NCBI RefSeq assembly: GCF_003312875.1
Contig: NZ_CP015163.1
Span: forward strand, 3,720,001 to 3,784,000
Direction: 5' to 3'
Origin: Amycolatopsis albispora
GTDB lineage: Bacteria; Actinomycetota; Actinomycetes; Mycobacteriales; Pseudonocardiaceae
Length of the DNA stretch: 64,000 bases
Made by a program: the position numbers and the translations under genes. Under the pieces are notes generated by a model that was not told the DNA's origin, did not search any database, and was given only the letters and a program-made list of their open reading frames with translations. Shown in pieces: positions 21,213 through 61,401 of the stretch (within the stretch, counting starts at the first letter, position 1; every line of letters starts with the position of its first letter).

Positions 21213-21265
21213 GTCACGAATGTGGCTTTCGAGACGTCTGGCGTCTCGAATGTGGCTTTCGTGAC
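21213..21265. repeat. Dispersed palindromic element, copy 1 (rearranged arm)
   Basis: Starts GTCACGAATGTGGCTTTCGA and ends TCGAATGTGGCTTTCGTGAC. Compared with the other copies, the right arm has its inner 9 bp (AAGCCACAT) inverted to ATGTGGCTT, so both arms carry the core in the same orientation. Lies 40 bp beyond the stop of the MFS exporter gene (21306). Confidence 0.85.
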
Positions 21266-21305: not shown

Positions 21306-22529
21306 TCACGCTTCTGCGCCGGGGCGGACGAAGAGGGAGGCGGCCAACGCCAGCAGCGTGATGCCCCCGAACGCGATCGCGGTGCCCGGGTAGCCGGCCA
21401 GGCCGAGGCCGACCCCGCCGATCGCGGCGCCGGCGAAGGTGCCCAGGCTCATGCCCGCCGCGTTCACGCCCAGTGCCGAGCCCCGCAGCGGGCCGCACCG
21501 GCGGACCAGCAGGGTCACCACGCACGCGGCCACGGTGGCGTGCGACGCCCCGAGCACCGCGGTCAGCACCAGCGCCAGCACCAGGTTCGTGGCGAAGTAG
21601 AACCCGGCCACCGCACCGAGCGCCACCAGCAGGCTCGCGGTCAGCATGTGCTCGGGCCGGATCCACGGCCGCTCCGCGCTGGTGTACCGCCCGGCCAGCA
21701 GGTTCCCGACGAAGAACGCCGCCCCGCTGAGCGTCCACACCAGGGCGAACAGCTCCGGGTCCAGTTCGAACCGCGAATCGTAGAACGCCGCCAGGTACGA
21801 CAGGTAGCCCATGAACGCCGCCGTCCGCAGCAGCGCGACCACCAGCAGCGGCACCGCGCCCGGCACCCCGGCCAGCGCGCGGAACGAGGCCAGGTAGCCC
21901 AGCCGCGGCCCGTCGTCCGAGGCGGCCACCGGTGCCGGGCGGCGGCGGAAGAACACCACCGACAGCGCCACCGAGATCACCGCCACCGCCAGCAGGTTCC
22001 CCCGCCACCCCCACAGCAGCGCGGGCAGCGCCACCAGCGGCGCGGCCAGCATCGCGGTCAGCGACTGGGTGGCGGTGACCAGCGTGGCCGCCCGCCCGGC
22101 CGCCGCGCCCGAGCCGAACCGGTCGGCCGCGTCGGCGGCCAGCGCCGGGTTCAGCACCGAGGTCGCCGCACCGACCAGCAGGCAGAACGCGGCCAGCGCG
22201 AGGAACTGCCCCGCCGCGCCCAGCACCGCGGACAGGCCGAGCAGCACCAGCCCGCCCCCGGCGGTGTACTGCTTGGGCACCCGGTCGAGCAGCGGGGCCA
22301 CCGCCGCGCCCACGCCCAGCGCCGCCAGCCCGCCGAGCCCGCGCAGCCCGCCCATGGCGGCCACGCTGGTTCCGGCGTCCGCCGAGATCGGCACCAGGAA
22401 GGTGCTGAACACGGTGAACGGCAACAGGCTCACCGCCGAGGCCAGCAGGACCGGGCCCAGCAGCCTGGCCATGCGCAGGTCGCTCGGCACCGGCAGCTCC
22501 CCCACCGGCTTCACGGTTTCCGCACTCAC
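21306..22529 (-). CDS. MFS transporter, probable metallophore exporter
   Basis: 407 residues, ~12 membrane segments of the CynX/YfcJ-like MFS type (LASAVSLLPFTVFSTFLVPI; AGTSVAAMGGLRGLGGLAAL; APLLDRVPKQYTAGGGLVLL). Start GTG at 22529, 43 bp after the stop of the DUF364 gene, so it is the likely last gene of the operon. In staphylopine-type systems an MFS pump (CntE) exports the chelator, and I infer the same job here. Palindromic element copy 1 lies just after its stop and may end transcription. The substrate is inferred from context only. Confidence 0.75.
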   Translation of the reverse strand: MSAETVKPVGELPVPSDLRMARLLGPVLLASAVSLLPFTVFSTFLVPISADAGTSVAAMGGLRGLGGLAALGVGAAVAPLLDRVPKQYTAGGGLVLLGLSAVLGAAGQFLALAAFCLLVGAATSVLNPALAADAADRFGSGAAAGRAATLVTATQSLTAMLAAPLVALPALLWGWRGNLLAVAVISVALSVVFFRRRPAPVAASDDGPRLGYLASFRALAGVPGAVPLLVVALLRTAAFMGYLSYLAAFYDSRFELDPELFALVWTLSGAAFFVGNLLAGRYTSAERPWIRPEHMLTASLLVALGAVAGFYFATNLVLALVLTAVLGASHATVAACVVTLLVRRCGPLRGSALGVNAAGMSLGTFAGAAIGGVGLGLAGYPGTAIAFGGITLLALAASLFVRPGAEA

Positions 22530-22572
22530 TTATCGCACTCTTTTCTTCGTGTTCCGCCCCTGGGGGCACAAT

Positions 22573-23403
22573 TTAACCGGCACGCCCGACGGGCGCCCGA
22601 TAGCGGTAGACGGTGCTCGGTTCCGCGCTGAATTGCGAAAACGGGAACGGTTCCGCCGAAACGGCGGTCACCCCGTGCCCGAGGAACGCCCTGGCCACCG
22701 CGCTGCCCGTCTGCGCGTAGATCACCAGCGGCAGGCCGCGGTCCCGGCTGCGCGCGAGCAACCGGTCGAAACTGCCGTTGCCCAGCGTCATCCCGGTGGC
22801 CACCACGGCGTCGGCGGCGTCGAGCACCTCGTCCATTTCGCGGCTGACCGGCTGCCCCCACTGGGTGGTGCGCAGGTTCAGGTCGCACGGCAGGCATGCA
22901 CCGCCGCGCTCGGTGATCGCCGCGACCAGCGGGTTCACCACGCCGATCAGGGCGACGCGCGCACCCGGCCGGATGTCCAGCAGCCCGGCGATCGCCTCGT
23001 CCCTGGCCCGCGCCCGGACCTCCGGCGTGCCGACGGGCAGCACCACCGGCTCGGCACCGGCTTCGCGGTGCGGTCGCGTGTCGGCGAGGTAGGCGTCCAG
23101 TGCCGCGATCCGGACCGGCAACCGGTCGTGCCGGATCAGCGCGTCCAGCGGTTCACCCGAAGCGGTGGCGCAGAAATCGGCGTCCAGTTCGCCTTCTTCG
23201 AACGAGCAGGCACCGAACGCGCTGCCGACGCGCAGCAGCAGGTAGTGGTTGCGGTAGGTGACCCCGCCACCGGCCAGCCGGGTGGTGTGGTGCAGCCAGA
23301 ACGCGCTCGTCACGGTGCGTTCGCCGGGTGGCGGGCCCAGTTCCCCGGCGAGCACGGCTTCGGTCAGCGCGGGCACACTTTCCATTTCCACTTTCCCTTT
23401 CAT
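22573..23403 (-). CDS. DUF364-type (putative heavy-metal chelation domain) protein
   Basis: 276 residues. The C-terminal half (from ~140, IRPGARVALIGVVNPLVAAI, then VVATGMTLGNGSFDRLLARS) matches the Rossmann-like DUF364 fold whose Pfam label is 'putative heavy-metal chelation'. A CLPC pair (Cys170, Cys173) lies in the loop after the first strand, and Cys66 and Cys78 are in the N-terminal part. The ATG at 23403 overlaps the PhyH stop (ATGA), indicating translational coupling; an in-frame ATG at 23385 is an alternative. It is probably a metal-handling or enzymatic partner in the biosynthesis or use of the predicted chelator; no reaction is known for the family. Confidence 0.7.
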   Translation of the reverse strand: MKGKVEMESVPALTEAVLAGELGPPPGERTVTSAFWLHHTTRLAGGGVTYRNHYLLLRVGSAFGACSFEEGELDADFCATASGEPLDALIRHDRLPVRIAALDAYLADTRPHREAGAEPVVLPVGTPEVRARARDEAIAGLLDIRPGARVALIGVVNPLVAAITERGGACLPCDLNLRTTQWGQPVSREMDEVLDAADAVVATGMTLGNGSFDRLLARSRDRGLPLVIYAQTGSAVARAFLGHGVTAVSAEPFPFSQFSAEPSTVYRYRAPVGRAG

Positions 23404-24161
23404 GGCAGGTCCGCCAGCAGTTCCCGCCGGTAACGCAACTCGGCCAGCTGCGGGCGGCCCGCGGGCTGGAAGCAGAACAACAGCGTGCGCCGGTCGCGAT
23501 CGCTGCGGTTGGGCGCCGACCGGTGCACCAGCGTGCCGGGGAACATCAGCACCGAACCGGCAGGCAGCTCGAGCACCCGCTCGCGTGACGCGTCCACTTT
23601 GGACGCATCGACCAGCAGCCCGGTGGGCTCGGCCCGGTCCCGCGGTGCCGGGCCGTCGCGGTGGCTGCCCGGGATGACGCTCAGCGCGCCGTTGCCGGCA
23701 CCCGCGTCGTCCAGGTAGATCATCGCGGTGGCGATGTCCGCCGCGGCCGGTCCGGCGCAGCAGTACCAGAACGGGAAGTCCTGGTGCCAGGCGAACTCCG
23801 AGCCGACCCCGGCCCGCTTGAAGTTCAGCTTGGACACGAACGGCCCCGGTTCGGCCACACCCAGCAGGTCCGCCATCGGCCCGGTGAGCCGCGGGTCCGT
23901 CCACAGTGCATCGAATGCCGGGTGCAGGTGCGAGACCGGCGCGAGGCTGCGGATCGTGCCGGTTGCTTCCGGCTCCCAGTGCAGCTTCGTGCCGTCCACG
24001 CTTTCCAGCCGGTGGCCGTCCGGCCAGACCTCGACGGAGGTCCGGCCGGACGCGGCCTTGGCCAGCACGTCGCGCTGCACCGACTCGGCGGCCTCGGCCA
24101 GCCGCGCGAGTTCGGCACCGCCGAACAGGCCGTGGAGGATTCGGTATCCGGGCTCGTTCAC
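23400..24161 (-). CDS. PhyH-family Fe(II)/2-oxoglutarate-dependent oxygenase
   Basis: 253 residues. The 2-His-1-carboxylate iron site is complete: His126-x-Asp128 in FAWHQDFPFWY and His213 in FPGTLVHRSAPN, with a following Arg (~R219-R225) suited to 2-oxoglutarate. GALSVIPGSHRDG (~158-170) is the family's conserved block. Most PhyH relatives in biosynthetic loci hydroxylate a free or carrier-bound amino acid or lipid. GTG start at 24161 overlaps the preceding stop (GTGA). Lying between the PLP enzyme and the DUF364 gene, it probably tailors the chelator, for instance by adding a metal-binding hydroxyl group (inference). Confidence 0.85.
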   Translation of the reverse strand: MNEPGYRILHGLFGGAELARLAEAAESVQRDVLAKAASGRTSVEVWPDGHRLESVDGTKLHWEPEATGTIRSLAPVSHLHPAFDALWTDPRLTGPMADLLGVAEPGPFVSKLNFKRAGVGSEFAWHQDFPFWYCCAGPAAADIATAMIYLDDAGAGNGALSVIPGSHRDGPAPRDRAEPTGLLVDASKVDASRERVLELPAGSVLMFPGTLVHRSAPNRSDRDRRTLLFCFQPAGRPQLAELRYRRELLADLP

Positions 24162-25183
24162 GCCACTCCCAGCACGTCGTGGCCCCGCGCGCAGGCGGGC
24201 CGCCGCGCCCAGTCCATCGCCGACCACGGGCAGGCCAGTTCGCTGAGCACGCCAACCTCGCGCGGGCGCATCCGGTCCAGGTCGTGTGCCTCGCGATGCC
24301 TGCTGTAGGCCGATTCGGCGTACCGGTGCCCGGTGTCCGCGGCGAGGAACACGTGCCGCCGCCCCGGCTCGCGCTCGTGTTCCCAGTGCGCCGCCAGATA
24401 GGCCGCACCGGCCGACAGCCCGGCGAAGATCCCGCTGGAGCGCAACAGGTCCACCGCCGCCGACATGGCGTATTCGAAGCAGATCCAGTGGATCCGGTCG
24501 TACAGCTCGTGCCGCACGTTCTCGAACTCGATCGAGCTGCCGATGCCCGCGATGATCATCTCCGGGTCGGCGACGTGCTCGGCGCCGAAGGTGACGCTGC
24601 CGAAGGGCTGCACGCCGATCAGCGTCACGTCCCGCCCCAGCTCACCGAGGTAGGAGGCGATCGCGCCGGTGGACGCGCCGGTGCCGACACCGCCGGACAG
24701 GCCGAGCGGGCCGGACGGCACCGCCCGGTCGATCTGCTCGGCCACCTCGCGGTAACCGAGGTAGTGGATCTCGTCGTGGTACTGGCGCATCCAGTGGTAC
24801 GACGGGTTTTCCCGCAGGATCTCGGTGATCCGCCGGACCCGCAGGCTCTGGTCGAGCTTGAGGCTGCGCGACGGCTGCACCTGCTCGAGCGTGGCGCCGA
24901 GGATTTCCAGCTGCACCTTCAGCGTGGCGTCGATCGTGGTGGACCCGACGATGTGGCAGTGCAGGCCGTACCGGTTGCAGGCCAGCGCCAGCGCGTGGGC
25001 GTAGATCCCGCTGGAGCTGTCGATCAGGGTGTCGCCCGGCCGCACCACGCCGGTGTCGAGCAGGCGCCGCACCGCACCCAGCGCCGAATAGATCTTCATC
25101 GTTTCGAAGCGCACGCAGAGCAGGTCGTCCCGGACCCGGATCAGGTCCGGTTCCTTGACCGCCTCGGCGAAGTGGTCGTGCAT
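24158..25183 (-). CDS. PLP-dependent cysteine-synthase/SbnA-like enzyme
   Basis: 341 residues of fold type II PLP enzymes. The Schiff-base Lys is probably Lys30 (RFETMKIYSALG), the substrate loop is SSSGIYAHALA (56-66), the phosphate-binding loop GGVGTGASTG (164-173), and DTGHRYAES near 280 resembles the cysteine-synthase C-terminal PLP contact. In cysteine synthases and in SbnA (staphyloferrin B) such enzymes replace a leaving group on serine by S or N nucleophiles. A C-N-forming beta-replacement building an aminoalanine-type chelator is therefore the leading idea. There is no SbnB partner next to it. ATG 25183 shares one base with the preceding stop. Confidence 0.85.
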   Translation of the reverse strand: MHDHFAEAVKEPDLIRVRDDLLCVRFETMKIYSALGAVRRLLDTGVVRPGDTLIDSSSGIYAHALALACNRYGLHCHIVGSTTIDATLKVQLEILGATLEQVQPSRSLKLDQSLRVRRITEILRENPSYHWMRQYHDEIHYLGYREVAEQIDRAVPSGPLGLSGGVGTGASTGAIASYLGELGRDVTLIGVQPFGSVTFGAEHVADPEMIIAGIGSSIEFENVRHELYDRIHWICFEYAMSAAVDLLRSSGIFAGLSAGAAYLAAHWEHEREPGRRHVFLAADTGHRYAESAYSRHREAHDLDRMRPREVGVLSELACPWSAMDWARRPACARGHDVLGVA

Positions 25184-25914
25184 CAGGCCGCGTCTCCCTT
25201 GGCGCGCAGGCGGAACAGGTAGGTCTGCACGTCGTCGTCCGGCCAGGTCCGGCGTTCGCGCACCTCGGGCACGAACCCGCTTTCGATGGCGTGCGCGATG
25301 ATGCCGCGCAGGTCCGCGGTGTTGGACACGATCAGGTGGATCTCGCCGCCGGGAGCCAGCAGACCGCGCGCGAGCACCTGGTCGAAGAACCGCGCGGTGA
25401 TCCCGGCGCCGACGCAGACGTTGCGCACCACGTCCGGGTCCTCGCTGGTCTTCAGCGCGACCGCGGGCGGGTTGAAGGTGATCACGTCGGCCTGCGCCTT
25501 GTCCGGGAAGGCGGTGAACAGGTCGGAGACGATCGCGTGCAGCGGCGGCGTGTCCCCGACGAACCGCCGGTAGTGCTGCTCGGTCGCGGCCACGCTGGCC
25601 GGGTGCACGTCGAGCGCGTAGATCTCGGCCGCGCCCGCGGTCCCGGCTGCCACCGCCTCCACGCCGAGCCCGGACCCCATGGCCACGTAGGTCCTGCCCG
25701 CCACCGGGATCCGGCCGTCGAGCAGCCGGTCGTGGATCATCTTGCTGGTCTCGCCCGGCCGGAAGACCCCGGGTGGCAGCTCGAATTCCCAGTCCCGGTA
25801 GGTGTGGGACCGCACCGTGTGCAGATCGTTCCTCGGCGGGTTCACCTCGAGGATCTCGGCGGTGGACAGCGTGGGCGGCAGGCTCGCGTGCAGTGCCCAG
25901 GATTCTTCGCTCAT
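25183..25914 (-). CDS. Class I SAM-dependent methyltransferase (NPP-motif type)
   Basis: 243 residues. SAM motif I is VAMGSGLGVEAVA (~77-89), the acidic ribose-binding residue is Asp102 (YALDVHPASV), and motif IV is FNPPAV (147-152). The (N/D)PPx motif is typical of enzymes modifying an exocyclic or amide nitrogen (PrmC/HemK-like). In the staphylopine pathway the SAM-using enzyme CntL transfers an aminobutyrate group instead of methyl, so either chemistry must be considered. ATG 25914 overlaps the ATPase stop (ATGA). It sits between the transporter and biosynthetic genes, so it is translationally linked to both. Confidence 0.8.
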   Translation of the reverse strand: MSEESWALHASLPPTLSTAEILEVNPPRNDLHTVRSHTYRDWEFELPPGVFRPGETSKMIHDRLLDGRIPVAGRTYVAMGSGLGVEAVAAGTAGAAEIYALDVHPASVAATEQHYRRFVGDTPPLHAIVSDLFTAFPDKAQADVITFNPPAVALKTSEDPDVVRNVCVGAGITARFFDQVLARGLLAPGGEIHLIVSNTADLRGIIAHAIESGFVPEVRERRTWPDDDVQTYLFRLRAKGDAA

Positions 25915-27377
25915 ACCGATTCCTTCCTGTCGAGCACCGGAGCGGAGCGGGGCTGCCCCAGTCCGGTGGCCATCCCGTCGTCGAGGACCAGCACCTCGCT
26001 GGTCACCGCGGCGATGAGCCCGAGGTCGTGGCTGATCCACAGCAGCGCGGTGGCCCGCTGCTCGTTCAGCCGCGCGAGCAGGGTGGTCACCCGGCGCGCG
26101 GTGCCGGGGTCGAGCGCGGTGGTGATCTCGTCGCACACCAGCACGTCCGGCTCGGCGAGCAGGGCACGCACGAGCGCGGCCCGCTGCAGTTCGCCGCCGG
26201 ACAGTTCACCGGGGTGCCTGGCCGCGATTTCCGCGCTGACGCCCAGTTCCGCCAGCAGTTCGACGGCTTCGCCACGCGCCGCCGTGGCGTCCAGGCCCCG
26301 CAGGCGGACCGCGGTGCGGGCCACCTGGTCGAGCACCGGCCGCCGGTCGTCGAACGAGCCGCGGACCTCCTGCCAGACGTACTGCACGCGGCGCCGGAGT
26401 TCGCGGCCGCGCTTGCGCAGCACCGGCAGCGGCCGCCCGTCGAGGCGCAGTTCGCCGGTGTACCGCTCGTGCAGCCCGGCGATGCACCTGGCGAGCGTGG
26501 TTTTCCCGCTGCCGGACGGGCCGACCACGCCGATCCGGCCGCCCGGCGGCAGCGCGAGATCGATGTCGTGCAGGATCGGCTGCCGTCCGCGTGGCCGCAC
26601 CGACGCCGACAGCCCGCGCAGTTCGAGCAGCGCGTCGGCCGGGCCGGGCGCCGCCCAGTCGTGTGCCGGTGGCACCACCTCGCCGAGCACCTCGTCCGGC
26701 GTGCCCGTGGCCACCACCCGGCCGTGGTCCAGCAGCACCACGTGGTCGGCCAGCGCCCGCACCAGATCGTGCTGGTGGCTCAGCAGCAGGATGGCCAGCC
26801 CGGTCGCAGCGAGTTCGGCCAGCTCACCGGCCAGGCGCAGCCGGGTGACCGTGTCGAGGCCGGTGCTCGGTTCGTCGAGCACCAGCACCCGCGGCCCGCA
26901 GACCAGCGCCTGCGCCAGCGCGACCCGCTGCCGCTGACCGCCGGAGAACTGGTGCGGGAACCGCCGCCGGACGTCACCGGGCAGTTGCGCCGCGCGCAGC
27001 GCTTCGGCGACAACGTCCTCTGTGGACTCGTTGGGGCGGTGCAGTTTCGCCAGTTCCCGCAGGGTGGTGCCGATCCGGCGGGCGGGGTTGAGCGCGCTGC
27101 CGGGGTGCTGCGGCAGGTATGACACCACTCCCCCGCGCAGTCCGGGCGGCGGTTCCCCGGCCAGCACGGCGGATCCGGCGACGGTCACCGATCCGGTCAG
27201 CCGCACCCCGGGCGCGGACTCGCCGAGCAGCGCCAGCGCCGCCGTGGTCTTCCCGCTGCCCGACGGCCCGACGAGCGCGGCCACCTTGCCGGGCCACAAC
27301 CGGAAACCGATGTCCCGCACCAGGAACTCGTCTCCGGCGCGGGCGGTCAGACCGTCCACTTCGACCAGTGCGCTCAT
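25911..27377 (-). CDS. Fused double ABC ATPase of the Opp/Nik (Cnt)-type importer
   Basis: 488 residues with two complete ABC cassettes. N-terminal: Walker A VGPSGSGKTTAALAL, signature FSGGQRQRVALAQAL, Walker B VLVLDEPSTGLD. C-terminal (from ~255): Walker A VGPSGSGKTTLARCI, signature LSGGELQRAALVRAL, Walker B VLVCDEITTALD, where the usual Pro after DE is Ile. In Opp/Dpp/Nik systems the two ATPases are normally separate (OppD/OppF, CntD/CntF). The fusion powers uptake through the two permeases encoded just upstream. ATG 27377 overlaps the permease stop (ATGA). Confidence 0.93.
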   Translation of the reverse strand: MSALVEVDGLTARAGDEFLVRDIGFRLWPGKVAALVGPSGSGKTTAALALLGESAPGVRLTGSVTVAGSAVLAGEPPPGLRGGVVSYLPQHPGSALNPARRIGTTLRELAKLHRPNESTEDVVAEALRAAQLPGDVRRRFPHQFSGGQRQRVALAQALVCGPRVLVLDEPSTGLDTVTRLRLAGELAELAATGLAILLLSHQHDLVRALADHVVLLDHGRVVATGTPDEVLGEVVPPAHDWAAPGPADALLELRGLSASVRPRGRQPILHDIDLALPPGGRIGVVGPSGSGKTTLARCIAGLHERYTGELRLDGRPLPVLRKRGRELRRRVQYVWQEVRGSFDDRRPVLDQVARTAVRLRGLDATAARGEAVELLAELGVSAEIAARHPGELSGGELQRAALVRALLAEPDVLVCDEITTALDPGTARRVTTLLARLNEQRATALLWISHDLGLIAAVTSEVLVLDDGMATGLGQPRSAPVLDRKESV

Positions 27378-28168
27378 GCCGCGACCACCTCCCGGCGACG
27401 GCCGAGCAACCGGTCGGCGAGCAGGTTCAGCCCGAGCGTGAAGGCCACGATCATGGCCGCCGGCGCGAGCACCGACCACGGTTGCAGCAGCAGGCCCTCC
27501 CGGTTGCGCGAAACCGTCACCGCCCAGTCCGGCGAGGTCGGGTTCAGCCCGAGCCCGAGGAAGTTCGCCGAAGCCACGATGAACACCGCGAGCGTGATGC
27601 GGGTACCGATGTCGGCGAGCACCGGCGGCAACGCCGACCGCGCGACCAAGCCGAACTGGATGCGTGCCCACGACTCGCCCTGCATGCGCATCGCCTCCAC
27701 CGCGGGCCCGCTCGCCGCGTCCAGCGCGGCCGCGCGCACCAGCCTGGCCACGGTCGGCACGTTCACCGCGCCGACCACCAGCGCGATCGCCAGCGGGTCC
27801 CCGCGCCAGCCGACCGCGACCACGCTGATCACCAGCAGCGAAGGCAGGGGCAGCAGGATGTCCAGCGGCCGGATCAGCGCCTCGTCCAGCACCCGGCGGC
27901 GGGTGGACGCGGCCACCAGGCCGATCAGCCCGCCCGCGAGATAGGCGAAAACCACGGCCAGCAGCGCCACGCCCAGCGTAGTGCGCCCGCCGAGCAGCAG
28001 CGTGCCGAACACGTCCCGGCCGAGCCCGTCGGTGCCGAGCAGCCCGCCGCCGCTGTACGGCAGACCGGGCGGGCGCGCGACCGCATCGGCCAGCAGCGGT
28101 CCGAGCAGCGCGACCAGCACCGGCACCGCGAGCAGTGCCACCGAAACCCCGGTGATCAGGCGCTTCAC
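27374..28168 (-). CDS. Opp/Nik-type ABC permease, second subunit (OppC/CntC-like)
   Basis: 264 residues with about six membrane segments. Typical OppC order: LGTDGLGRDVFGTLLLGGRT near the N-terminus and the EAA loop AMRMQGESWARIQFGLVARS contacting the ATPase, then NFLGLGLNPTSPDWAVTVS. GTG at 28168 overlaps the first permease stop (GTGA). Forms the transmembrane channel with the upstream permease. Confidence 0.93.
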   Translation of the reverse strand: MKRLITGVSVALLAVPVLVALLGPLLADAVARPPGLPYSGGGLLGTDGLGRDVFGTLLLGGRTTLGVALLAVVFAYLAGGLIGLVAASTRRRVLDEALIRPLDILLPLPSLLVISVVAVGWRGDPLAIALVVGAVNVPTVARLVRAAALDAASGPAVEAMRMQGESWARIQFGLVARSALPPVLADIGTRITLAVFIVASANFLGLGLNPTSPDWAVTVSRNREGLLLQPWSVLAPAAMIVAFTLGLNLLADRLLGRRREVVAA

Positions 28169-29112
28169 CGCAGCACCTCCGTCCGCGGCACGAGCCGGTT
28201 GCAGACCAGGTCCGCGGCGAGGTTCACCAGCAGCGCGGCGACCGCCAGCACCAGCGTCAGCCCCTGCACCACCGGCACGTCCCGCGCTTCCACCCCGTCG
28301 ATCAACGCGGTGGCGAACCCGGGAATGGCGAAGATCGCCTCCACCACCAGCACCCCGCCGAGCAGGTTGTCGCCGACGCGGGCCAGTTCCTGCACGCCGG
28401 GCACCGCCGCGTTGGGCAGCACGTGCCGCAGCAGCAAGGATTTCCGGGGCACGCCGAGCCGGCGCGCCTGCACCACGTACCCGGCGTGCAGCGAGGTGAT
28501 CGTGCCCGCGCGGACCTGCCGCGACAGCGTGCACACCGTGCGCAGGAACAGCACCAGCACCGGAAGCACCAGCAGTTCGGGGCTGGTCAGCAGGTCCTCG
28601 CCGGTGGCGCCAACCCAGGTCGCGGGCAGCCAGCCGAGTTGCAGTGACAGCACCGAAATCAGCAGCAGCGCCAGCACGAAGTCCGGGATCGCGGTGAGCA
28701 CCAGGGTGATCGAGGTGATCGACCGGTCCAGCCTGCCGCCCTCGTACACCCCGGCCAGCGCGCCGAGCAGCGCGGCCAGCGGCACCACCACGGCCAGCGT
28801 GGCCACCGCGAGCACCAGCGTCGCGCCCACCGAGCCGCCGATGATCTCGGTCACCGGCTGCCCGTTGACCAGCGAATGCCCGAGGTCCCCGGTGAGCACC
28901 CCGCCGGCCCAGTCGAAGAACCGCTCCACCGCGGGCCGGTCCAGCCCGAGTTCGGCACGCAGGTTCGCGACCTGCTCCGGGGACGCGCTCTCGTCGAACC
29001 GCACGTCGGCGGCGTCCCCCGGCAGCAGCGCGGTCAACGCGAAGACCAGCACGGAAAGCACCATCAGCTGCACCAGGGCCAGGCCCAGCCGCTGGGCGAC
29101 GTATCCACGCAC
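28165..29112 (-). CDS. Opp/Nik-type ABC permease, first subunit (OppB/CntB-like)
   Basis: 315 residues. Characteristic N-terminus (RLGLALVQLMVLSVLVFALT), a periplasmic loop with RAELGLDRPAVERFFDWAGG and GDLGHSLVNGQPVTEII, and the EAA loop VVQARRLGVPRKSLLLRHVL. About six membrane segments. GTG start at 29112, 4 bp after the binding-protein stop. Together with the next permease and the fused ATPase this makes a complete family-5 importer, used by relatives for peptides, nickel, or metal-opine complexes. Confidence 0.93.
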   Translation of the reverse strand: MRGYVAQRLGLALVQLMVLSVLVFALTALLPGDAADVRFDESASPEQVANLRAELGLDRPAVERFFDWAGGVLTGDLGHSLVNGQPVTEIIGGSVGATLVLAVATLAVVVPLAALLGALAGVYEGGRLDRSITSITLVLTAIPDFVLALLLISVLSLQLGWLPATWVGATGEDLLTSPELLVLPVLVLFLRTVCTLSRQVRAGTITSLHAGYVVQARRLGVPRKSLLLRHVLPNAAVPGVQELARVGDNLLGGVLVVEAIFAIPGFATALIDGVEARDVPVVQGLTLVLAVAALLVNLAADLVCNRLVPRTEVLR

Positions 29113-29116
29113 CGCT

Positions 29117-30652
29117 TCAGCCCAGCCACACCTTGTCGAACCGGGCCCAGTCCACCGTGTTCGGTGGCACCGGCCGGACGCCGTGCACGTTCGCGGCCAC
29201 CGCGGTGATCCAGTCGGGGTGGCCCCAGGCGAGCAGGCCGCCGCGGTCGTGCAGGTCTCGCTGGAGGGCGTGGTACAGCCGGGTCCGCTCTGCTTCGTCC
29301 ACAGTGGACTGTGCCGTGGCGAAGGCGGCGTCGAACTCGGGGCGCTTCCACGCGGTGGCGTTGAACGGGGAAGTGGAGAGCAGGCGCGAGTTGATGTAGT
29401 CGGGGATCGGCGCGGCTCCGGCGCGGTGGCTGCCGAGCACCCCGGTGGTCAGCTGGTCCTTGAAGTAGGTCTCGGCGGCACCGGTGACCACCTCCACCCG
29501 CATGCCCGCCTCACCGGCCTGCTCGGCGAAAAGCGTTGCGGCGTCGACAAAACCAGCGGAAACGGTGGAGGTGAAGAACTGCACGGGCTGGTTGAGCACA
29601 CCCGCCTTGGTCAGCAGCGAACGCGCTTCGGCGACATCACGCGGGCGCTGTGGCAGCGTGCTGTTGTAGTAGCGGTAGCCCTTGCCGAACAGGTCGTTGC
29701 CCGGCACCCCGCGACCGCCGAGCACCACGTCGACCAGCCGCTGGCGGTCGGCCAGCAGCTTGAAGGCCAGCGACACGTCCGGGTTGTCGAACGGCGGCCG
29801 GTCGGTTTTCAGCACGAACGCCTGCGTGGTGCAGCCGGGCGCGGCGACGATCTTCACCGTGCGCCCGGCCTCGGCCGTCCTGGCGAAGGTCGGGGACATC
29901 TCGTGCGCGTACTCGGCCTGCCCGCCCTGCAGCGCGTTCGCGCGCGCGTCCGCGTCAGCCGAGAGGATGTGCAGTTCGTCGAGCAGCGCGGGCCCCTCCC
30001 AGTGCTCGTCGAAGCGCCGGGCCACCAGTGCCCGGCCCGGTTCGAACGAGACGAACCGGAACGGCCCGGTGCCCACCGGGTTCGCCGGATCGGCGTAACC
30101 GTTGCGCACGATCGCCGCACCGGTGGTGGCCAGCAGCGCGGGCAGCTCGGCCGACGGCGTGCTGAGCGCGATCTCCACCGTGCGGGGATCGACCACCCGG
30201 CACCGTCCGATGTCGATGGCCGAAAGGGACTGCCTGGCCAGCCGGTCACCCGCCGCCGGGTCGAGGATCCTGGCCAGGCTGAACAACACGTCGTCGCCGG
30301 TCAGCGGCTGGCCGTCGTGGAAAATCGCCTGGCGCAAGGTGAACCGCCACACGGTGGCGTCCGCAGTGGACTCCCAGCGCTCGGCCAGCCGGGGCACCGG
30401 CGCCAGGTCGTCGCCCAGCTCGGTGAGCTTGTCGAAGATCGCCTTGTGCCTGGCCTGGTCGATGAACAGGTTCTGCGCGTGCGGGTCGAGGGTCTCCCTG
30501 GTCCCGCCCCCGGTGAACAACGCACGCAACCGCCCGCCGCGCTGGGGTTCGCCCGCCTCGCCCGGGCTCTCCGCACCACCGCACCCCCCGAGCACCAGTG
30601 CCGCTCCCGCCGAAAATCCGAGAAAACCCCGCCGCGTCAGGGCGATCGGCAT
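29117..30652 (-). CDS. Tat-exported lipoprotein, family 5 solute-binding protein (CntA/NikA/OppA type)
   Basis: 511 residues. The N-terminus has a twin-arginine motif (TRRGFLGFS) and lipobox LGGC with lipidated Cys24, so it folds before export and is anchored outside the membrane. Family 5 blocks: GGRLRALFTGGG, LAERWESTADATVWRFTLRQ, FHDGQPLTGDDVLFSLARIL, and GTGPFRFVSFEPG. Ligand residues cannot be read off; peptides, nickel chelates or metal-opines are all used in the family. ATG 30652 with GGAGGA nearby. First gene of the operon, 130 bp downstream of the Zur/Fur-like promoter; first-gene position suits a high-level receptor. Confidence 0.92.
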   Translation of the reverse strand: MPIALTRRGFLGFSAGAALVLGGCGGAESPGEAGEPQRGGRLRALFTGGGTRETLDPHAQNLFIDQARHKAIFDKLTELGDDLAPVPRLAERWESTADATVWRFTLRQAIFHDGQPLTGDDVLFSLARILDPAAGDRLARQSLSAIDIGRCRVVDPRTVEIALSTPSAELPALLATTGAAIVRNGYADPANPVGTGPFRFVSFEPGRALVARRFDEHWEGPALLDELHILSADADARANALQGGQAEYAHEMSPTFARTAEAGRTVKIVAAPGCTTQAFVLKTDRPPFDNPDVSLAFKLLADRQRLVDVVLGGRGVPGNDLFGKGYRYYNSTLPQRPRDVAEARSLLTKAGVLNQPVQFFTSTVSAGFVDAATLFAEQAGEAGMRVEVVTGAAETYFKDQLTTGVLGSHRAGAAPIPDYINSRLLSTSPFNATAWKRPEFDAAFATAQSTVDEAERTRLYHALQRDLHDRGGLLAWGHPDWITAVAANVHGVRPVPPNTVDWARFDKVWLG

Positions 30653-30782: not shown

Positions 30783-30812
30783 ATACTGACAGATAATGGA
30801 AATCATTGTCAA
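30783..30812 (-). promoter_or_regulatory. Promoter with Zur/Fur-type operator for the metallophore operon
   Basis: Minus strand: -35 TTGACA (30812-30807), 18-bp spacer, weak -10 CAGTAT (30788-30783). The spacer contains TGACAATGATTTCCATTATC. The 15-mer TGACAATGATTTCCA (30811-30797) agrees at 13 of 15 positions with the actinobacterial Zur box TGAAAATGATTTTCA as I remember it. On the plus strand GATAATGGAAATCATTGTC (30792-30810) agrees at 16 of 19 with the classic Fur box. AATG...CATT arms are symmetric. A repressor bound here would block the -35/-10 region. Confidence 0.75.
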
Positions 30813-30910: not shown

Positions 30911-30971
30911 CGATGTCACGAATGTGGCTTTCGAGACGTCAGGCGTCTCGAAAGCCACATTCGTGACATCG
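30911..30971. repeat. Dispersed palindromic element, copy 2
   Basis: A 61-bp near-perfect palindrome: CGATGTCACGAATGTGGCTT plus TCGAGACG, a 5-base loop (TCAGG), then the exact complement. The 28-bp arms are fully paired. Lies between the trpA stop and the metallophore operon promoter. Confidence 0.92.
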
Positions 30972-36219: not shown

Positions 36220-36274
36220 TGTCACGAATGTGGCTTTCGGGACGCGAAACGTCTCGAAAGCCACATTCGTGACA
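36220..36274. repeat. Dispersed palindromic element, copy 3
   Basis: Starts TGTCACGAATGTGGCTTTCG and ends CGAAAGCCACATTCGTGACA, with a GGGACG/CGTCTC inner stem containing one G-T wobble. It lies between divergent starts (trpE and TetR), so this copy cannot be serving as a terminator for either gene. Confidence 0.9.
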
Positions 36275-45611: not shown

Positions 45612-45703
45612 GCGGGCAACTATAGAGCCCGGTCCACGACCTCCCGAGAGCCCCCGGAACCGAGCGCCCGCGGCCCAGGACCAGGCGTGGCCAGCGCCCT
45701 TGG

Positions 45704-45754
45704 ACACGAATGTGGCTTTCGGGGCGGATTTCGCCCCGAAAGCCACATTCGTGT
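45704..45754. repeat. Dispersed palindromic element, copy 4 (compensatory changes)
   Basis: Arms ACACGAATGTGGCTTTCG and complement around an inner stem GGGGCG-GATTT-CGCCCC (outer ends 45704 and 45754). Relative to copies 2 and 5 (GAGACG...CGTCTC) both sides of the inner stem have changed so that pairing is kept. Between priA and hisH, both on the minus strand. Confidence 0.92.
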
Positions 45755-45788
45755 TCTCGTCGAGAGGGCACCGCGTACCGTGCCCGGG

Positions 45789-58827: not shown

Positions 58828-58880
58828 GTCACGAATGTGGCTTTCGAGACGTCTGGCGTCCCGAAAGCCACATTCGTGAC
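58828..58880. repeat. Dispersed palindromic element, copy 5
   Basis: Begins GTCACGAATGTGGCTTTCGA and ends CCGAAAGCCACATTCGTGAC. The inner stem GAGACG/CGTCCC has one A-C mismatch, so this copy is drifting. It abuts the tandem repeats on its left and lies ~100 bp before the alpha/beta hydrolase gene. Confidence 0.9.
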
Positions 58881-60477: not shown

Positions 60478-61401
60478 TCAGCCGGGCTGCCGCGCGAGCG
60501 CCTGCGCCCGGCGTTCGACGAACCGCGTGGCCTGCTTCTCCAGCCCGGTCAGGAACTCGTGCAGCTCGTCCCGCGCCCGCTCGCCCTCCTCGCCGAGGCC
60601 CTCCAGCTCGAAGACGCGCCAGTGCCGCAGCAGCGGCCAGATCACCTCGTCGTGGTGGATGCGCAGGTCGTAGATCCCGGCCTTGGCGATCTGCGCGGCC
60701 TTGCGCACGAACCCGGGGATGATGCTGCCGGGCATCTGGAAGCCGACCACCTCGTCGGTGATCGCGCGGACCATCGCGTCCGGGGTCACCTCGAGCGCCG
60801 CGGTGACCAGGTTCCGGTAGAAGATCATGTGCAAGTTCTCGTCCATCGAGACCCTGGCCAGCAGCTTGTCCGCGATCGGGTCCTGCGTGTACCGCCCGGT
60901 GTTGCGGTGCGAAAGGCGGGTCGCCAGCTCCTGGAACGACACGTAGGCGAACACGCGCAGCAGCGGCTTGTCCTCGCTGTCGTACCCCGCCTGCATGGTG
61001 GCCATCCGGGCGCGCTCCAGCTCGACCGGGTCGACCGCCCTGGTCACCAGCAGGTAGTCGCGCAGGCAGATGCCGTGGCGGCCCTCCTCGGCGGTCCAGC
61101 GGTGCACCCAGGTGCCCCAGGCGCCGTCCCGGCCGAAGGCGCGCTCGATCTCGCGGTGGTAGCTGGGCAGGTTGTCCTCGGTGAGCAGGTTCACCTCGAG
61201 CGCGGTGCGCGCGATCGCCGGGACCTCGGACTGGCCGGGCTCCCACGGCTCGCCGCCCAGGTCGGCGAAGTTGCGCCCGAGGCTCCACGGCACGTACTCG
61301 TGCGGCATCCACTCCTTGGCCACTTCGAGGTGCCGGTTGAGGTTCGCCTCGGCGACGGGTTCGAGTTCGAGCAGCAGTCGGGTGGTCTCGGAAATCGGCA
61401 T
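60478..61401 (-). CDS. Acyl-[acyl-carrier-protein] desaturase (DesA-like)
   Basis: 307 residues, ferritin-like diiron enzyme introducing a double bond into acyl-ACP. Diiron ligands: Glu in NLLTEDNLPSYHR (E..H type), TAEEGRHGICLRDY (ExxH), and SMDENLHMIFYRNL (ExxH). Start ATG 61401 (PISETTRLLLELEPVAEANL). It is divergent from the RNA helicase gene; two direct repeats in that region suggest specific control. The much longer open frame continuing upstream is antisense to the helicase and is not used. Confidence 0.93.
   Translation of the reverse strand: MPISETTRLLLELEPVAEANLNRHLEVAKEWMPHEYVPWSLGRNFADLGGEPWEPGQSEVPAIARTALEVNLLTEDNLPSYHREIERAFGRDGAWGTWVHRWTAEEGRHGICLRDYLLVTRAVDPVELERARMATMQAGYDSEDKPLLRVFAYVSFQELATRLSHRNTGRYTQDPIADKLLARVSMDENLHMIFYRNLVTAALEVTPDAMVRAITDEVVGFQMPGSIIPGFVRKAAQIAKAGIYDLRIHHDEVIWPLLRHWRVFELEGLGEEGERARDELHEFLTGLEKQATRFVERRAQALARQPG

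What the first reader, a model, noticed from the sequence alone, without database searches (positions are those of the whole stretch)
21306..30652. Candidate undescribed metallophore system: make, export and re-import in one coupled operon
Nine genes on one strand, nearly all joined by ATGA/GTGA overlaps: Tat-lipoprotein receptor, two Opp/Nik-type permeases, fused double ATPase, NPP-type methyltransferase, SbnA/cysteine-synthase-like PLP enzyme, PhyH oxygenase, DUF364 'heavy-metal chelation' protein, MFS pump. The transport half mirrors staphylopine CntABCDF plus the CntE exporter, but CntK, CntL (by sequence look) and CntM (opine dehydrogenase) are missing and other enzymes stand in. The combination does not match any pathway I know, including EDDS, staphyloferrin B, pseudopaline or coelibactin. 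Inference: an aminoalanine-type (PLP step), N-modified, hydroxylated small chelator for zinc or a related metal.
Basis: partly seen in the sequence, partly recalled or inferred. Interest (0 to 1): 0.88.

Follow-up and report, generated by a model that had tools for sequence, protein, structure and literature searches.

The report
Zinc-controlled metallophore gene cluster
A soil actinobacterium carries a compact nine-gene unit, apparently switched on by zinc shortage, that looks built to make, release and take back a small metal-grabbing molecule using an enzyme set that does not match the known zinc scavengers I compared it with.

Summary
"Metallophore, probably zinc" holds and gains evidence. 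A Zur (zinc uptake regulator) box, TGACAATGATTTCCA, lies at 30797-30811, 145 bp before the first start codon, overlapping a TTGACA hexamer. A tight box of this kind occurs 4 times in the 9.12-Mb genome; two others sit before zinc-starvation genes (AztB/AztD importer; a CobW_C gene with bL36 type B). All 16 close Opp-type operons whose receptor gene is in view carry one 49-145 bp before it. In 80 related loci the constant core is a PLP enzyme plus DUF364 (77 of 80; the other 3 are cut contigs), usually with an MFS exporter (72); the importer in view is Opp/Nik type (11) or FecCD type (59; both in 3, neither in 13). Methyltransferase, PhyH oxygenase and a GHMP kinase are optional. No CntL- or CntM-family enzyme is among the nine genes. 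Best reading: a Zur-repressed zincophore system of a new biosynthetic type with DUF364 as a core enzyme. The product and DUF364's reaction are unproven. I found no description in the open-access library searched.

The parts
30797..30811 (-). Zur-type box TGACAATGATTTCCA (read on the minus strand), 145 bp upstream of the first start codon
   Evidence: 13 of 15 to TGAAAATGATTTTCA; 1 mismatch to TGANAATNATTNTCA, 4 such sites in the whole genome, 0 for the reversed control; spacing; consensus tGaNNatSatNNtCa from PMC5472717 (passage)
30807..30812 (-). TTGACA hexamer (candidate -35) overlapped by the Zur box
   Evidence: TTGACA at this place in 24 of 24 hand-picked aligned operon promoters, window included; the generic promoter scan reported no promoter in the region
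29117..30652 (-). SBP family 5 receptor, Tat-lipoprotein-like (511 aa)
   Evidence: PF00496 E 3.4e-68; best NCBIfam Opp5A_nikA 139 bits, below its 600 cut-off
28165..29112 (-). Opp/Nik-type permease 1 (315 aa)
   Evidence: PF00528, PF19300
27374..28168 (-). Opp/Nik-type permease 2 (264 aa)
   Evidence: PF00528 (scanned as 27374-28534); start
25911..27377 (-). fused double ABC ATPase (488 aa)
   Evidence: two ABC_tran stretches (scanned as 25911-27671)
25183..25914 (-). HemK/N6AMT1-like SAM methyltransferase with NPP motif (243 aa); match in 40 of 80 relatives
24158..25183 (-). PLP beta-replacement-type enzyme, core (341 aa)
   Evidence: PF00291; TIGR03945 SbnA family 126 bits, below its 350 cut-off; Lys30 invariant in 15 aligned
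23400..24161 (-). PhyH 2-oxoglutarate/Fe oxygenase (253 aa); match in 14 of 80 relatives
   Evidence: PF05721 (scanned as 23400-24227); 7e01, 7dzz and leucine hydroxylase 5nch nearest; count
22573..23403 (-). DUF364 protein, core (276 aa)
21306..22529 (-). MFS exporter (407 aa)
   Evidence: PF07690

Best explanation
A Zur-repressed zincophore operon. In zinc-replete cells Zn-bound Zur sits on the -35 region and keeps the operon off (inferred from the box). When zinc runs short, the cell makes the enzymes. The PLP enzyme joins an activated serine- or threonine-type amino acid to an amine, giving a diamino-acid or aminopolycarboxylate core (inferred from its SbnA-like family and from the kinase beside it in relatives). 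DUF364 carries out the second indispensable step, most likely closing or condensing the chelator (inferred from its near-constant linkage to the PLP gene). The methyltransferase and PhyH N-methylate and hydroxylate the product in this lineage (inferred). The MFS pump exports it, and the lipoprotein receptor with its two permeases and fused ATPase brings the metal complex back (inferred from family). Shown here: the genes, their order, the conserved box, and the interchange of Opp-type with FecCD-family importers. Not shown: the molecule, the metal, and any reaction.
For: Zur box: 4 tight sites in 9.12 Mb, reversed control 0. One lies at the 5' end of the AztB frame (362.5 bits over 280), with AztD downstream (502 over 400); another precedes a CobW_C gene and a bL36-type-B frame recognised by eye. 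All 16 close Opp-type loci with the receptor in view carry a tight box 49-145 bp before it. Over 90 distinct loci (94 less 4 repeats shown), 58 have a tight box within 400 bp upstream of a cassette gene, and 62 of 72 tight boxes lie there. Reversed and two scrambled patterns give 0 in 1.52 Mb. Of the loci fetched after the tight pattern was fixed, 11 of 16 carry it, 9 of 12 after removing repeats. DUF364 within 4 kb of the PLP gene in 77 of 80; DUF364 plus exporter 72 of 80; Opp or FecCD importer 67 of 80. A distant lineage pairs a 43-46% DUF364 with a ~30% PLP enzyme and a ~50% Opp importer in 3 of 3 loci; in the one read in full (L123) an MFS is present, and its PLP enzyme has SbnA and CmnB as nearest solved structures. 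Opine zincophore clusters use the same two importer types (PMC7438024 passages).
Against: No experiment. The looser published consensus is not specific alone: 134 sites in this genome against 17 for the control; the tight form was chosen after seeing the sites. 32 of 90 distinct loci lack a tight box within 400 bp of a cassette gene: some are cut contigs, six (L010, L013, L016, L054, L116, L118) have a tight box outside that limit, and others, such as L058, L061 and L078, have none. Of the three distant loci only L123 has a tight box. DtxR/IdeR-like sites (3 mismatches allowed) occur in 5 of 80 loci. The PLP enzyme is below the SbnA cut-off and has SSGI where CmnB and cystathionine beta-synthase have TSGN; no kinase match was found in this genome, without a positive control, so its substrate is open. 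The FecCD-family importer's best NCBIfam models are putative F420-0 transporter subunits, below cut-off, so 'siderophore-type' is inference. DUF364 has no assigned reaction.
Confidence: 0.8

Rival explanations
1. Same architecture, but the chelator serves another metal (nickel, cobalt, iron, copper) and Zur control is incidental or broad.
For: Receptor, both permeases and the ATPase score best against nickel or nickel/cobalt models; known metallophores of this transport type can carry several metals (recalled); DtxR-like sites in 5 of 80 loci.
Against: Nur-type pattern 0 of 80 loci, DtxR/IdeR-like 5 of 80, tight Zur 55 of 80; the nickel models are all below their curated cut-offs.
Confidence: 0.1
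2. Not a scavenger: the operon makes a zinc-sparing metabolite or replaces a zinc enzyme under starvation, the importer being an unrelated peptide permease caught in the same operon.
For: Zur regulons include alternative ribosomal proteins and enzymes (PMC6103462, passages); Opp-type permeases commonly import peptides (recalled).
Against: An exporter and an importer travel with the enzymes, and the Opp importer is replaced by a FecCD-family importer in most relatives.
Confidence: 0.06
3. A chelating antibiotic or competitor-starving toxin rather than a nutrient carrier.
For: An MFS with a weak hit to the Cmx/CmrA efflux family (42 bits, cut-off 400); patchy distribution, 11 of 80 genus genomes, own included.
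Against: Two different importer families accompany the same enzymes, as expected for self-uptake.
Confidence: 0.04

Closest known systems
Staphylopine/pseudopaline-type opine zincophores (Cnt)
   Same: Make-export-reimport layout (recalled for Cnt); SBP_5 receptor with Opp-type permeases and ATPase domains plus an MFS; actinobacterial opine clusters also use FecCD or both importer types (PMC7438024 passages).
   Different: No NAS-type CntL and no opine dehydrogenase among the nine genes; NAS family not found in the genome; chemistry built on PLP enzyme plus DUF364.
Staphyloferrin B SbnA-type and CmnB-type PLP synthases
   Same: The PLP enzyme's best NCBIfam model is SbnA; the distant lineage's PLP enzyme has SbnA and CmnB as nearest solved structures.
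   Different: 126 bits against a 350 cut-off; no further Pfam family of siderophore synthetases among the nine; SSGI instead of the TSGN of CmnB.
Zur-controlled zincophores of actinobacteria (EDDS of A. japonicum, coelibactin)
   Same: Zur-controlled metallophore synthesis in actinomycetes (PMC6103462 passage).
DUF364 protein Dhaf4260 (3l5o)
   Different: 15% identity; here it sits in a defined biosynthesis/transport operon with a Zur box.

Membership tests
Opine-like zincophore (Cnt) system | CntL nicotianamine-synthase-like enzyme | tested here: not met
   No NAS (PF03059) match among the nine or in the whole genome; the control rang in Methanosarcina
Opine-like zincophore (Cnt) system | CntM opine dehydrogenase | tested here: inconclusive
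   No PF10100 match among the nine nor in the genome, but the genome search rang in no control
Opine-like zincophore (Cnt) system | CntA receptor | tested here: not met
   NF047575 CntA 43 bits, cut-off 800
Opine-like zincophore (Cnt) system | Opp-type SBP, two permeases, two ATPase domains and an MFS exporter together | tested here: met
Zur regulon | Zur box in the promoter | tested here: met
   1 mismatch to the tight box; 16 of 16 close Opp-type loci carry one
Zur regulon | Derepression on zinc starvation or zur deletion | not testable with these tools
   needs expression data
SbnA 2,3-diaminopropionate synthase | TIGR03945 score over cut-off | tested here: not met
   126.2 of 349.95 bits
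SbnA 2,3-diaminopropionate synthase | PLP-binding lysine of the fold | tested here: met
   Lys30 is invariant in 15 aligned sequences and aligns with the Lys of SIKGR in CmnB; that this is the PLP lysine is recalled
SbnA 2,3-diaminopropionate synthase | O-phosphoserine as substrate | not testable with these tools
   needs enzyme assay
DUF364 (PF04016) | profile score over cut-off and two-domain fold | tested here: met
   [not shown]
EDDS (aes) pathway | orthologues of the EDDS genes | not tested
   no reference sequences on hand

The most novel reading that the evidence does not exclude
An actinobacterial zincophore class whose minimal biosynthetic core is only two enzymes, an unusual SSGI-loop PLP synthase and DUF364, making DUF364 the first member of its family with a defined job: the metallophore-forming synthase. 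Around this core, kinase, methyltransferase, 2OG-oxygenase, ATP-grasp and importer modules are swapped between lineages, giving a family of related chelators.
Probability: 0.5. Interest if true: 0.82.

Novelty: new variant of a known kind. Interest (0 to 1): 0.72.

Why it matters
Zinc scavenging by small molecules is known from few pathways. This would add a biosynthetic class with members in Streptomyces, Kribbella, Pseudonocardia, Nocardiopsis, Kibdelosporangium and Amycolatopsis (named records, genes), give a function to DUF364, a family with a structure since 2010 and no activity named in the passages and abstracts I saw, and offer a simple gene set to look for new chelators. The Zur box predicts the condition under which to look.

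Tried and rejected

Literature. DUF364 terms: 7 papers, all listed, and 2 for DUF364+chelation. Zincophore+Zur: 42 papers, 30 listed. Zincophore+Streptomyces+gene cluster from 2019: 18, all listed. Also (1; 177, 20 listed; 101, 15 listed; 26, 20 listed; 1; 14). No listed title or abstract opening describes this cluster. Passages only were seen of PMC2954201, PMC4046660, PMC5472717, PMC6103462, PMC12161575, PMC10320115, PMC7438024. Preprints and most subscription papers are not held.
Full report
Observation. The nine genes exist as described, all on the minus strand from 30652 down to 21306, with Pfam support for each. Five proteins (second permease, ATPase, methyltransferase, PhyH, DUF364) were scanned there with longer frames than the starts I adopt. 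Five junctions overlap by 4 nt, one by 1 nt, one has a 4-nt gap and the last a 43-nt gap. The organism is an Amycolatopsis by nearest named proteins (methyltransferase 96% to A. lurida; DUF364 90% to A. magusensis), in a 9.12-Mb single contig. In three close genomes the same nine genes lie between trpBA and the same MFS gene (trp names by eye), so the unit is inherited as a block there; 11 of 80 genus genomes, own included, have the DUF364 gene.

Regulation. Upstream of the receptor the sequence reads TTGACAATGATTTCCATTATC. Bases 2-16 match the actinobacterial Zur box; the S. coelicolor ChIP consensus is tGaNNatSatNNtCa (PMC5472717, passage). I first scanned with TGAAAATGATTTTCA: 174 strand-wise hits at 12 or more of 15 in 1.61 Mb, against 1 in 2.24 Mb of single-base-shuffled sequence. 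The published consensus with one mismatch gives 134 sites in this genome and 17 for the reversed control, so it is weak alone. A tighter form, TGANAATNATTNTCA with one mismatch, chosen after seeing the loci, gives 4 sites in the whole genome and 0 for the control. These are the window operon; the 5' end of the AztB frame (ahead of where the AztB model begins), with AztD downstream, both over their NCBIfam cut-offs; a site before a CobW_C gene (Pfam; its ZigA and MRF scores are below cut-off), followed by a frame I recognise as ribosomal bL36 type B; and one of unclear meaning at 4211054. The genome has four FUR-family genes; which is Zur was not determined.

Conservation of the box. One search examined 94 loci: 80, 13 fetched, and the window. 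One search showed that L115, L117, L119 and L121 repeat L026, L079, L066 and L120. Over the 90 distinct loci, 58 have a tight box within 400 bp upstream of a cassette gene start (60 of 94 as run), and 62 of 72 tight boxes lie there (64 of 74 as run). All 16 close Opp-type loci with the receptor in view have one, 49-145 bp before it. The three distant loci L122-L124 were not in that count; only L123 has a tight box. In the 80 loci the tight Zur pattern is in 55, DtxR/IdeR-like in 5, Nur-like in 0, reversed or scrambled in 0; in the 16 loci fetched afterwards it is in 11 (9 of 12 without repeats). In 24 of 24 promoters picked and aligned by hand the box starts inside TTGACA, the geometry of a simple repressor; a generic promoter scan found no promoter there. 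Against: 32 of 90 distinct loci lack a tight box in place. Some are cut contigs, six have one outside the limit, others (such as L058, L061, L078) have none.

Core and accessories. Of 170 places encoding a relative of the PLP enzyme the best 80 were kept, so this is a sample of close relatives. Within 4 kb of the PLP gene: DUF364 77 of 80, methyltransferase 40, PhyH 14, GHMP kinase 46. Within wider limits: window-type MFS 43, EntS-like MFS (my label) 29, TauD oxygenase 13, Opp importer 11, FecCD importer 59, both importers 3, neither 13, no exporter 8 (thresholds in the script). The three without DUF364 (L034, L036, L075) have the PLP gene at a contig end. Neither the Opp importer nor PhyH occurs with the kinase in this sample. 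The three Kribbella loci show no methyltransferase match. So PLP + DUF364 plus transport is the constant part. The kinase is a GHMP kinase by Pfam in the two examples scanned; that it acts on serine or threonine is inference. No match to it was found in this genome (no positive control). The FecCD permease and receptor examples are PF01032 and PF01497; their best NCBIfam models are putative F420-0 transporter subunits, below cut-off, with siderophore and B12 models next.

Sister systems. The genome holds a second PLP-type operon at 9.087 Mb (63% identity): FecCD, ATPase and receptor matches and the PLP gene, with a SAM methyltransferase and an ATP-grasp-like frame read by eye and no DUF364 (the family's only match is in the window). 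The genus is probably Streptomyces: a contig of a fourth member (L125) has the length of a Streptomyces record. L123 adds MFS and an ATP-grasp-like gene read by eye; its PLP enzyme's nearest solved structures are SbnA and CmnB.

Distribution. In an even sample of the phylum 6 of 396 genomes, own included, have a DUF364 of this kind at E 1e-30, the other five of one genus; only six candidates per genome were scored, so this is a lower bound.

Conclusion. The regulation, the exporter and the two interchangeable importer families point to a zincophore system, 0.8. The same pair of importer types is reported for actinobacterial opine zincophores (PMC7438024, passage). It works like Cnt but is not a member: no NAS-type enzyme was found and the receptor is far below the CntA cut-off. 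What the molecule is, and what DUF364 does, remain open and are directly testable because the inducing condition is now predicted.

Noticed in passing
21213-21260, 30915-30967, 36221-36273, 45703-45755, 58828-58880: A dispersed palindromic repeat (GAAAGCCACATTCGTGAC arms) brackets the operon on both sides; 197 forward and 191 reverse exact arm matches genome-wide, no exact arm in the 20-kb stretches of three close relatives and a fourth genus member.
   Followed up: partly
L091 (own genome 9078000-9097000): Second operon with a 63% PLP paralogue, FecCD importer, SAM methyltransferase and an ATP-grasp-like frame (the last two by eye), near an M14 zinc carboxypeptidase gene; perhaps another metallophore-like pathway without DUF364.
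   Followed up: partly
L122, L123, L124: Distant clusters with DUF364, PLP enzyme and Opp importer; L123 (and by its start L124) also an ATP-grasp-like gene: a divergent variant of the same idea.
   Followed up: partly
L043 7835-8827: Beside the Kibdelosporangium version, divergent genes for a very His-rich small protein and an ArsR-family regulator with a His-rich tail.
   Followed up: no
L120 and L121: One Amycolatopsis contig of 277 kb carries the cassette twice, near both ends and inverted, almost base for base: terminal duplication or assembly artefact.
   Followed up: no
window 61019-61086: Rfam match to ASdes, listed as a TB sRNA, in an Amycolatopsis genome.
   Followed up: no
[not shown]
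   Followed up: no
L094, own genome 4211054: Fourth tight Zur-like site of the genome, shortly before an ORF of unclear function.
   Followed up: no
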